From positions 1 through 64,000 of the forward strand of contig CAIJXV010000013.1 of NCBI GenBank assembly GCA_903824675.1: a DNA stretch of 64,000 nucleotides, given 5' to 3'. Shown piece after piece: positions 4,415 through 34,307 of this stretch (position 1 is its first letter; each line of letters begins with the position of its first letter). The position numbers and the translations under genes were made by a program. The notes beneath the pieces are model-generated. The model was not told the origin of the DNA and made no database searches. It was given only the letters and a program-made list of their open reading frames with translations. The stretch comes from an uncultured bacterium (GTDB taxonomy: Bacteria > Verrucomicrobiota > Kiritimatiellia > CAIKKV01 > CAIJXV01).

Positions 4415-4440
4415 CGGCGCATCTGTGATTCGGTGCATCG
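4415..4440 (-). repeat. Degenerate copy of hairpin repeat A (inverted)
   Basis: On the minus strand this reads GCACCGAATC followed by ACAGATGCGCC, matching the loop and 3' arm of the hairpin repeats at 6306-6335 and 34250-34279. The 5' arm has decayed, so this copy would not fold well. It lies between the lysS promoter region and the split REP element. Confidence 0.6.
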
Positions 4441-4477
4441 AAAACGTTTATAAGGGCGTGTACACCAACCGTTTTCT

Positions 4478-4499
4478 ATTGATGTCGGCCCGCCCTTCT
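4478..4499. repeat. Left half of REP-like element B, interrupted by the IS110 element
   Basis: Nineteen bases (4478-4496) are identical to the reverse complement of the intact repeat at about 29.68-29.70 kb, ending in the CCCGCC arm of its hairpin. The other arm, GGCGGG, is found at 6186-6191, directly after the IS110 element. The two halves joined reproduce the intact repeat apart from a few loop bases. Confidence 0.75.
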
Positions 4500-4992
4500 A
4501 TGAGGATTCACGTCAACTATTTGTTTGGGGTTCTTTTCTTATGCTGTTGTTTTCATTCGTATCCTATTGTTGTTTTGCTATGGACCGTGCGGTGAGCCTG
4601 GCTCGGACCGACGGCCGCGCCGAGAATGGGCGCACCCCGCTCGTCGCAGGTGTGGCCGTCGCACGCCGAGCCGGGCGGCCGTTGCCCGGTGAACACCGAT
4701 TGTTCGGGCCAGATTCATTTTTTTATTCGGCAGTCGCATCCGAGGATGATTCGGCTGATGTGGGCTCCAAGCCACCTATGGCTGGACAACCTTCTATCCG
4801 TTAGGGCCGAAGCCCTGAACAAAATGCTGCATACGTCAAAAAGACTCATTCAGCCGAAATAACCAGGAAAAACAATCTCTGAAACCGGTGTGATGAGCAC
4901 CAAGGGCGGGCCCGTTTTCCTGAACATCCTTGTGAGACAACTTCACCGCCTTAAACTCCTTCTGGGTCGGCCCCCGGGCGGGGGTCGCGCCA
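4500..4992 (-). ncRNA. Candidate bridge (guide) RNA region of the IS110 element
   Basis: This is the long non-coding segment 3' of the transposase. IS110-family elements carry a structured guide RNA in one non-coding end; in IS1111-like members it lies downstream of the transposase. On the plus strand, 4902-4912 (AAGGGCGGGCC) is the exact reverse complement of 11 bases of the target flank at 4487-4497, as a target-binding loop would be. GC-rich potential stems surround it, for instance CCCCCGGGCGGGGG at 4971-4984. The exact RNA ends are not visible. An alternative is that the match is another REP fragment. Confidence 0.35.
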
Positions 4993-6099
4993 TTATGCTT
5001 TGAGAACCGCACCCTCCGGTACAAGGCCATATTCCAAGTACTTCCAGAGGGCCACGAGCAGTTTTCGGGCCACCGCAACGATGCCTTTACGCTTGGAACG
5101 GCTGGTCCCCCCGCGGACATATCGTTCGATAAACCAGTGAGTTAGGGCACTCTTCGGCTGCCATCGGACCCAATTCCAAGCCAATTCGATCATCGTCATG
5201 CGCACCCGTCCGCTACCCGCTTTACTGATTCCTTGCTCGCGCAACGTCTCGCCGCTATCAAAGGGGGTGCCGGTCAGTCCCGCAAACGATCCGAGGTGCT
5301 TGCGATTGGCGAAGGTCCGCCAGCCGAAGCACTCATGACTGAGCACCCAACTGCTCTGAGGCCCCACCGCCTTGAGACGCGACAACTTACGGGCCTTTTG
5401 TAAAGCTGGGGTCGGGGCTTGAGCCAAGGCGGCAACCTGATGCTTCTCAAGACCTTTAATCTGCTCTTCCACCAGACACAACCGTTGCTGTTCTCGTTTT
5501 AACTCGGTGATCCAAAGCTCAGGTAACGGCTTCCCCTCCCAGGTCTGCAATTGGTCGATCACCACCGTGGCCGGATTGCGGAGGTCAACCCCATGCAACA
5601 CGCCGATCGACTTCATCCGGGCCCGGTGTCCGGTGCGTTCTTTAACCAATCGCTCCCGCTCACGGTGAATCCGCATTTCAGATTCCTGCTCTTCACTGGG
5701 AACCCGGACGGTGGAAAAAGTCCCCCGTTCGCCCCACAGTTCCCGGCGCAACAGGAGCTTCAAAAGCTTGTGGGCATCCAGTCGATCCGTCTTCCGGGTG
5801 CGGGATCGCCGGGGCACCTCGATACTGGCCGGATCCATCACGTAGTTCTTAAATCCGTGCTTCTTCAACATTCGATCAATCCAAAACCCATCCCGCCCTG
5901 CTTCGTAACAGAACACCACGGGGGCGTCGACCGCCAAACCCAGTTTCTCTTTTGCCCAGACCACTTCTCGAAGTAACATCTCTTCCTGGCGCGCGGGCAG
6001 GGTTCGTTCCCGTTCCACGCTCCCTTCTCCGAAAACCAGCTTCCATTTTTTGTTGCTCAATTCCATCGCTACGAATAGACTTTTTTCTTGCAGGGACAT
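4993..6099 (-). CDS. IS110-family transposase
   Basis: Recombinase with an N-terminal RuvC-like DEDD domain and a C-terminal Transposase_20 domain. SRTRKTDRLDAHKLLKLL carries the later acidic residues of the N-terminal domain. GISKAGSGRVR in the C-terminal domain contains the Ser expected to be the nucleophile. The first acidic position is Glu (FVAMELSNKKW) rather than the Asp seen in many family members. I start at 6099 because AAGGAGG lies about 8 nt upstream; the frame stays open to 6174 but that extension has no family match that I recognise. The 368 residues are intact, so the element may be active. Confidence 0.92.
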   Translation of the reverse strand: MSLQEKSLFVAMELSNKKWKLVFGEGSVERERTLPARQEEMLLREVVWAKEKLGLAVDAPVVFCYEAGRDGFWIDRMLKKHGFKNYVMDPASIEVPRRSRTRKTDRLDAHKLLKLLLRRELWGERGTFSTVRVPSEEQESEMRIHRERERLVKERTGHRARMKSIGVLHGVDLRNPATVVIDQLQTWEGKPLPELWITELKREQQRLCLVEEQIKGLEKHQVAALAQAPTPALQKARKLSRLKAVGPQSSWVLSHECFGWRTFANRKHLGSFAGLTGTPFDSGETLREQGISKAGSGRVRMTMIELAWNWVRWQPKSALTHWFIERYVRGGTSRSKRKGIVAVARKLLVALWKYLEYGLVPEGAVLKA

Positions 6100-6174
6100 G
6101 ACTCCGCCTCCTTGGGTTGATGGTTTATATAACAACACACCCTTCAACTTTAATGGTTGATCATGTCCCTGCAT
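6091..6174. repeat. 10-bp inverted repeat flanking the transposase start
   Basis: CAGGGACATG at 6091-6100 and its exact reverse complement at 6165-6174 enclose 64 bp that include the ribosome binding site. The inner arm covers the ATG of the transposase. It could be a subterminal recognition repeat, or an mRNA stem that limits translation. Confidence 0.5.
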
Positions 6175-6179
6175 AGTAT

Positions 6180-6252
6180 CTCTGTGGCGGGCGTCTGAAG
6201 ATGAAGCGGGCTGGATCCGCTGACGCCGGGCGCTGAGGCCCGGCCTACACCA
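6180..6252. repeat. Right half of REP-like element B
   Basis: Contains GGCGGGCGTCT (6186-6196), the second arm of the hairpin split by the insertion. It is followed by a second palindrome, GCCGGGC to GGCCCGGC, ending CCTACACC near 6250. In reverse orientation it aligns with 29625-29680, with small indels between the two palindromes. Confidence 0.7.
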
Positions 6253-6262
6253 ACGGGGAATC

Positions 6263-6335
6263 GGGTTGTGGGCGAAGCCCCACCAAGGTGTTAATTAAGG
6301 GAATAGGCGAATTTGCACCGAATCGCAAATGCGCC
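6263..6335 (+). repeat. Repeat A, copy 1: conserved 20-mer plus hairpin
   Basis: The 20-mer at 6263-6282 is identical to 34205-34224. About 20 bp later lies a hairpin at 6306-6335: arms GGCGAATTTGC and GCAAATGCGCC with one A-G mismatch, enclosing the loop ACCGAATC. The same arrangement recurs at 34205-34279. It sits in the 277-bp gap before the lipoprotein gene. Confidence 0.75.
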
Positions 6336-6451
6336 CGTTCACAACGGATCTTCAATTTAAGATTGACGCCCCCGCGTCAACGGCCTACAAATTAAGACCG
6401 ATCTTGAAGATAACAGTCGCGGGGTGATCCCGAACGAAAAGGCGGTGTGTC

Positions 6452-29630: not shown

Positions 29631-29703
29631 GCCGGGCCTCGGTGCCCGGCGGCCGGATGGGTCGGGAAGACGCCCGCCAGAGAGGGCGGGCCGACATCAA
29701 TCG
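29625..29703 (+). repeat. REP-like element B, intact copy
   Basis: Two palindromes in tandem. The first is GCCGGGC (29631-29637) pairing with GCCCGGC (29644-29650). The second is CCCGCC (29673-29678) pairing with GGCGGG (29685-29690), and the element then runs to GACATCAA. The reverse complement matches the two halves flanking the IS110 element at 4478-4499 and 6180-6252. It starts inside the 3' end of the preceding gene. The rest of the gap to 29792 holds nothing else I recognise. Confidence 0.8.
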
Positions 29704-34050: not shown

Positions 34051-34204
34051 ATTGGGCAACGGCCCGAAAGAGAATCGCTTTCCAAAATGTTTCCCAGAAA
34101 GCGATATTTCATGCGTCCAATCAAGATCGGGGCTCAAGGAATTCCGATTAGAGTGGATGACCCACCCCGTCCGCGAATCTGCACGAATCGCACACGAATC
34201 AAGA

Positions 34205-34279
34205 GGGTTGTGGGCGAAGCCCCAACTGGGGCTGGTTATCAAGGAAATAGGCGAATTTGCACCGAATCGCAGATGCGCC
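34205..34279 (+). repeat. Repeat A, copy 2: conserved 20-mer plus hairpin
   Basis: The 20-mer 34205-34224 is identical to 6263-6282. The hairpin has arms GGCGAATTTGC (34250-34260) and GCAGATGCGCC (34269-34279) around ACCGAATC. Compared with copy 1, one arm base changes A to G, turning an A-T pair into a G-T wobble, so the fold is kept. Confidence 0.75.
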
Positions 34280-34307
34280 CTGTCAAGTCCATCCCTCAAA
34301 CTAGAGC

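What the first reader, a model, noticed from the sequence alone, without database searches (positions are those of the whole stretch)
4478..6252. IS110 element inserted in the loop of a REP-like hairpin, with ends readable from an intact copy
Bases 4478-4496 and 6185-6196 flank the element. Together they match, contiguously and in order, the reverse complement of 29667-29702. The insertion point falls in the hairpin loop between CCCGCC and GGCGGG, and a CT dinucleotide occurs at both junctions. Several known IS110-family elements (IS621, IS1397 and relatives) target REP palindromes, so this may be a similar REP-targeting element outside the Proteobacteria.
Basis: partly seen in the sequence, partly recalled or inferred. 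Interest (0 to 1): 0.72.

Follow-up and report, generated by a model that had tools for sequence, protein, structure and literature searches.

The report
RNA-guided IS110 element nested in MITE
A small mobile DNA element has inserted into the loop of a hairpin inside another, much-copied mobile element, and it carries an RNA whose sequence visibly spells out that landing site; a well-readable new case of a recently discovered kind of RNA-guided insertion rather than a new kind of system.

Summary
A single-copy, intact IS110-family element (window 4497-6181, 1,685 bp; transposase 4996-6099, minus strand) sits in the loop of a GCCCGCC..GGCGGGC hairpin. Joining the flanks restores the hairpin (33/34 nt identical to 29667-29702), with CT at both junctions. 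Two corrections. (1) The interrupted sequence is not a plain REP. It is a ~237-bp MITE-like repeat with 23-bp terminal inverted repeats and 9-bp target duplications, at least 20 copies in this genome and none full-length in 38 relatives; the hairpin also occurs without the MITE ends. (2) IS1397 is IS3-family, not IS110. The target choice can be read. The 3' noncoding region folds into a bridge RNA/seekRNA whose target loop contains GGCCCGCCCT (complement of AGGGCGGGCC) and CAGAG (left half). In eight genomes (own plus seven relatives) the guide covaries with each copy's own target (4 of 40,320 permutations as good). The layout is IS1111-like, but the subterminal repeats are short (5 bp), and the clade carries Glu in place of the first catalytic Asp. 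I judge it a new member of a known kind. Host taxonomy was not established. Function is inferred, not shown.

The parts
4415..4496 (.). left part of the interrupted MITE-like repeat (23-bp terminal inverted repeat at 4415-4437; hairpin arm GGCCCGCC and core CT 4495-4496 at its right edge)
   Evidence: alignment of the joined site with intact copies L073, L003, L014, L077, L075; TIR and TSD test
4495..4496 (.). core dinucleotide CT (AG on the transposase strand), left copy
   Evidence: same core position in relatives: RE always ...CATAGA|AG|target
4497..6181 (-). IS110-family element, 1,685 bp (includes the second core copy 6180-6181); transposase strand is minus, so its LE lies at 6179 and its RE at 4497
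   Evidence: LE ATACTATGCAGGGACA and RE TTGACGTGAANCCTCATAGA conserved in L018 while the flanks differ
4497..4505 (-). RE terminus CCTCATAGA (carries CATAG, half of the 5-bp subterminal inverted repeat)
4746..4936 (-). predicted bridge RNA/seekRNA in the 3' noncoding region
   Evidence: conserved in 9 elements, 14 of 22 consensus pairs with changes on both sides; fold of this strand
4903..4912 (-). right-target guide GGCCCGCCCT, exact complement of AGGGCGGGCC (core plus hairpin arm)
   Evidence: covariation with target in 8 genomes
4873..4886 (-). left-target guide segment GGTTTCAGAGATTG; CAGAG equals the left target half plus core
4864..4872 (-). 3' arm of the target-loop stem (UUUUUCCUG), pairing with 4915-4922 (CAGGAAAA)
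4790..4834 (-). donor-binding loop (GTATGCAGCAT...GGATAGAAGG); ATAGAAG matches RE CATAGA-AG, AGCAT nearly complements LE
   Evidence: GGATAGAAG conserved in eight of the nine aligned elements
4996..6099 (-). transposase, 368 aa, intact; catalytic residues E13, E66, D105, D108
   Evidence: fold matches IS621 and ISCro4 recombinases
6167..6179 (-). LE terminus ATACTATGCAGGG (CTATG pairs with CATAG of the RE)
6180..6181 (.). core dinucleotide CT, right copy (an adjacent CT at 6182-6183 belongs to the target)
6182..6336 (.). right part of the interrupted MITE-like repeat: rest of hairpin, second GC-rich hairpin (6224-6250 region), TIR at 6314-6336
   Evidence: L008

Best explanation
It is an intact IS110-family element with an IS1111-like layout that inserted, guided by its own RNA, into the loop of a hairpin inside a ~237-bp MITE-like repeat. 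The proposed steps are these. (1) The transposase excises the element as a circle joining RE and LE across an AG core. (2) The RNA from the 3' noncoding region pairs through its target loop with the two strands of the site: GGCCCGCCCU pairs with AGGGCGGGCC on the top strand, and CAGAG corresponds to the left half and pairs with the bottom strand. Its donor loop pairs with the circle junction. (3) The RuvC-like transposase exchanges strands at the AG core, leaving AG at both ends and no other duplication. Choosing a multi-copy intergenic repeat gives many harmless landing sites. Shown here: site, ends, core, family, guide-target complementarity and its covariation. Inferred: circle, RNA expression, strand exchange and activity.
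For: Flank join and core. Ends fixed by comparison with L018, whose joined site GATGTGTAGGACGTGCTTCCCC resembles an intact copy GATGTGAAGGACGTGCTTCCCC in the same locus. Transposase family hits and fold match to IS621 and ISCro4 recombinases bound to bridge RNA. Guide GGCCCGCCCT is the exact 10-nt complement of the right target, found in 3 of 2,000 shuffled noncoding regions, at the same aligned position as in the relatives. Guide-target covariation in 8 genomes: 52 of 56 nt matched, permuted mean 32, 4 of 40,320 permutations as good. Left guide best with its own flank in 4 elements: true pairing is the top value of 24 permutations. Target-loop stem covaries. The string AAGGACTGACACC occurs in nine genomes only at the three element copies, confirming that the RE ends CATAGA before the AG core.
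Against: Single copy in this genome, so there is no second insertion and no proof of recent activity. The fold of the 191-nt RNA is only moderately more stable than shuffles (z -1.66). The 9-bp duplication of this particular MITE copy is degraded. The first catalytic residue is Glu, so activity is not certain. Two of the eight covariation targets are the same sequence. The Acidobacteria relatives L047-L049 gave no readable target loop by the same search.
Confidence: 0.87

Rival explanations
1. The transposase recognises the hairpin structure (cruciform) rather than sequence through a guide RNA, as suggested for some REP-targeting elements.
For: The own target is a palindrome loop; several relatives' targets also contain inverted repeats.
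Against: In L018 the insertion is at the base of a hairpin, not in its loop; targets differ in sequence and structure between relatives but follow the guide.
Confidence: 0.07
2. The site is coincidental: the element hopped into a common repeat because such repeats are frequent and tolerated, with no specific targeting.
For: The repeat family is abundant (at least 20 full copies, 53 hairpins) and intergenic insertion is harmless.
Against: Exact position in the loop at a core shared by all relatives; 10-nt guide complement; covariation.
Confidence: 0.03
3. The element is an old, inactive relic whose guide still matches only because its flanks have been preserved (compatible with guided insertion in the past).
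For: Single copy; Glu in place of the first catalytic Asp; MITE copy has a degraded target duplication.
Against: Open reading frame intact over 368 aa; Glu is invariant in the five full-length clade proteins, including the 67% relative, so it is not a fresh defect; two near-identical elements in one genome, G159, indicate recent mobility of the clade, although the second has a shorter match at the N-terminus.
Confidence: 0.2

Closest known systems
IS1111 group with seekRNA (ISEc11, ISPa11, ISKpn4; PMC11187229)
   Same: long noncoding region downstream of tnp; guide order top-strand match then bottom-strand match; ISPa11 targets a REP; PF02371 C-terminal domain
   Different: no 11-13 bp subterminal inverted repeat, only 5 bp perfect (CATAG/CTATG); transposase 368 aa against 330-350 aa; Glu at first catalytic position; target is a hairpin in a MITE
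IS621 and bridge RNA (PMC11208160)
   Same: IS110 recombinase fold; RNA with separate target and donor loops; CT core; insertion in a repeated palindrome
   Different: bridge RNA is at the other end of the element; only about 18% identity in the fold match
IS110-family elements nested in other mobile elements: IS4321/IS5075 in Tn21 terminal repeats (title cited in PMC11208160) and ISEc21 in IS3-family elements (PMC11187229)
   Same: an IS110-family element that uses another mobile element as its landing site
   Different: here the landing site is the internal hairpin of a small non-autonomous repeat
REP-targeting IS110 elements ISPpu9, ISPpu10, ISPa11, ISRm19 (PMC1525189)
   Same: high selectivity for repeated palindromes
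   Different: those are classical short REPs in Proteobacteria with several insertions each

Membership tests
IS110 family (broad) | transposase with DEDD_Tnp_IS110 and Transposase_20 domains | tested here: met
   PF01548 31.8 bits (cut-off 29), PF02371 51.9 bits (cut-off 21.3), NF033542 175.6 bits (cut-off 140); Foldseek to IS621 and ISCro4, E to 2e-11
IS110 family (broad) | DEDD catalytic tetrad | tested here: inconclusive
   E66, D105, D108 present, first position is Glu (E13) throughout the clade where ten other IS110-type proteins align Asp
IS110 family (broad) | no terminal inverted repeats and no target duplication beyond a short core; circle intermediate | tested here: met
   only AG shared at the two junctions and no long terminal repeat; the circle itself was not testable
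[quoted passage not shown]
   (by sequence only; no RNA data)
IS1111 group | long noncoding region downstream of tnp | tested here: met
   about 499 bp after tnp against about 80 bp before it
IS1111 group | top-strand match lies 5' of bottom-strand match in the RNA | tested here: met
   GGCCCGCCCT lies 5' of CAGAG; rule from PMC11187229
IS1111 group | subterminal inverted repeats of 7-17 bp, usually 11-13 bp | tested here: not met
   5 bp perfect CATAG/CTATG, 6 of 8 in the own element
IS1111 group | transposase clusters with IS1111 transposases | not tested
   no reference IS1111 sequences aligned; length 368 aa is outside the 330-350 aa quoted in PMC11187229
MITE (for the interrupted repeat) | terminal inverted repeats | tested here: met
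   23-bp GGGCGCATCTGCGATTCGGTGCA at both ends, sharp loss of similarity outside
MITE (for the interrupted repeat) | target-site duplication | tested here: met
   9-mers at the exact ends agree 65 of 99 over 11 copies against 20-29 for the other eight offsets of the same length; perfect in two copies
MITE (for the interrupted repeat) | multi-copy, non-coding, with an autonomous partner | tested here: inconclusive
   at least 20 full-length or nearly full-length copies of about 234 bp; an ISKra4-like gene in G006 abuts the same repeat, but scores below the NF033572 cut-off, only one end was found, and none was looked for in the own genome
REP | short extragenic palindrome at high copy, linked to a RAYT (Y1) transposase | tested here: inconclusive
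   53 palindromes, hairpin also outside the MITE, but the two Y1 hits in the genome have no such hairpin in their loci

The most novel reading that the evidence does not exclude
The element belongs to a distinct IS110 subgroup with E-E-D-D catalytic residues, a downstream bridge RNA and short (5 bp) subterminal repeats, intermediate between the IS110 and IS1111 groups, whose members in different genomes have been re-aimed by guide mutation at the local repeats of each host.
Probability: 0.35. Interest if true: 0.55.

Novelty: new member of a known kind. Interest (0 to 1): 0.42.

Why it matters
It is a clean natural case in which the guide, target, core and both element ends of an RNA-guided insertion can be read from sequence, together with seven relatives that show natural re-aiming. 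If the clade is active, its Glu-containing active site and short subterminal repeats would bear on how the IS110 and IS1111 groups split, and it adds candidates for programmable DNA insertion. It also shows guide-directed use of a MITE as a landing site.

Tried and rejected
Core placed one step further into the element (CT at 4498-4499, loop CTTCTGT, matching several intact 7-nt loops): rejected because the RE of every relative carries CATAGA before AG, AAGGACTGACACC occurs only at element copies, and the guide and the L018 intact copy fit the other placement. Patterns that included those extra A bases were therefore not valid counts of empty targets; they showed no clear excess over the reversed control for GAAGGACGYGC or AAGCCGTGGGC. 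RAYT origin of the hairpin: the two Y1 transposase hits have no hairpin in their loci. Taxonomy by 16S: none in the assembly. Rfam: no match in the window. Literature searches for IS110 with bridge RNA and MITE, IS1111 with Verrucomicrobia, and Kiritimatiellota with insertion sequences returned nothing. A first pooled offset score for the target duplication was not significant (838 of 5,000 shuffles as good); the exact-offset 9-mer comparison in the same call was clear.

Full report
Observation. The window carries an IS110-type transposase on the minus strand (PF01548 and PF02371; NF033542, 'IS110 family RNA-guided transposase', 175.6 bits against a cut-off of 140). It is the only copy of this element in a 4.24-Mb, 124-contig assembly; one other IS110-type gene is 27% identical. 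The flanks 4478-4496 and 6182-6196 join into a sequence 33/34 identical to the reverse complement of 29667-29702.

Exact ends. The closest relative (L018, 67% identity) shares LE ATACTATGCAGGGACA and RE TTGACGTGAANCCTCATAGA, then diverges. In all relatives with a readable RE it ends CATAGA followed by AG. The string AAGGACTGACACC, which contains the last A of that end, occurs in nine genomes only at the three element copies, so that A belongs to the element and AG is the core. This gives element 4497-6181 and restored target GCCCGCC-ACAGAG-GGCGGGCC. In L018 the joined site GATGTGTAGGACGTGCTTCCCC resembles an intact copy GATGTGAAGGACGTGCTTCCCC in the same locus.

What was interrupted. The palindrome GCCCGCCN2-14GGCGGGC occurs 53 times in the genome against 5 for the reversed pattern. 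Its copies share long flanks, and the joined site aligns to several of them over about 237 bp. The aligned unit is bounded by a 23-bp inverted repeat, GGGCGCATCTGCGATTCGGTGCA. Nine-base direct repeats abut those ends: 65 of 99 positions agree over 11 copies, against 20-29 at other offsets of the same length, with two perfect cases. At least 20 near-full-length copies occur in this genome and only fragments in 38 relatives. This is the anatomy of a MITE. In a genome of the same order an ISKra4-like transposase gene (165.6 bits, below the 205 cut-off; PF06782 above its cut-off) ends directly before the same terminal repeat, a plausible autonomous partner. Some hairpins, including the one at 29667, lack the MITE ends, so a REP-like two-hairpin unit exists separately too.

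Guide RNA. The 3' noncoding region (about 499 nt) contains a segment conserved in nine elements. Its consensus fold has 22 pairs, 14 of them with changes on both sides; the target-loop stem varies while staying paired. In the own element the target loop holds GGCCCGCCCT, the exact complement of AGGGCGGGCC, and CAGAG, the left target half including the core. A perfect 10-nt complement arises in 3 of 2,000 dinucleotide-shuffled noncoding regions. Over eight genomes (own and seven relatives) the first seven bases past the core match the guide at 52 of 56 positions; the mean of all permutations is 32 and only 4 of 40,320 do as well, ties included because two targets are identical and two others agree over those seven bases. 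The left guide fits its own flank best in the four elements where it can be read. The donor loop contains ATAGAAG, as does the RE plus core, and a segment nearly complementary to the LE.

Mechanism. By analogy with IS621 bridge RNA (PMC11208160) and IS1111 seekRNA (PMC11187229), the RNA most likely holds the circular element and the target together while the RuvC-like transposase exchanges strands at AG. The predicted fold (mean pLDDT 82.8) matches IS621 and ISCro4 complexes. Circle formation, RNA expression and activity were not shown.

Placement. The element is IS110 family in the broad sense. It has the IS1111 layout and guide order, but its subterminal inverted repeat is 5 bp (CATAG/CTATG) where IS1111 elements have 7-17 bp, and its transposase is longer, so I do not file it under IS1111. 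The clade has Glu where other IS110-type proteins in these genomes have Asp at the first catalytic position; I found no paper describing this in one search.

Limits. The nearest named transposase relatives are Acidobacteria MAGs and one gammaproteobacterial MAG. Whether the other relatives' targets are multi-copy was not properly counted.

Noticed in passing
L018, L019, L053, L047 and window 4996-6099: The first catalytic residue of the IS110 DEDD motif is Glu in the whole clade (E13 in the window protein), Asp in other IS110 proteins of the same set of genomes.
   Followed up: partly
window 34180-34285: Partial MITE-like remnant: terminal inverted repeat and flanking arm without the two GC-rich hairpins.
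   Followed up: partly
L118:207-1343: ISKra4-like transposase gene ending next to the 23-bp repeat that bounds the MITE; possible autonomous partner in a genome of the same order.
   Followed up: partly
L111 (G000:C13:121300-122600): The MITE's internal ~139-bp hairpin unit is tandemly triplicated between one pair of terminal repeats, with a perfect 9-bp duplication outside.
   Followed up: partly
L047 (Acidobacteria MAG): A 43% relative is inserted in an ACCACAGAG-ACGCCGAGACACG sequence with a CTCTGTGGTT counterpart downstream; its target loop could not be read with the same pattern.
   Followed up: partly
L053 and L055 (G159:C1): Two near-identical copies of a related element in one genome in front of TGACACCTTTTT repeats, suggesting recent mobility.
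   Followed up: no
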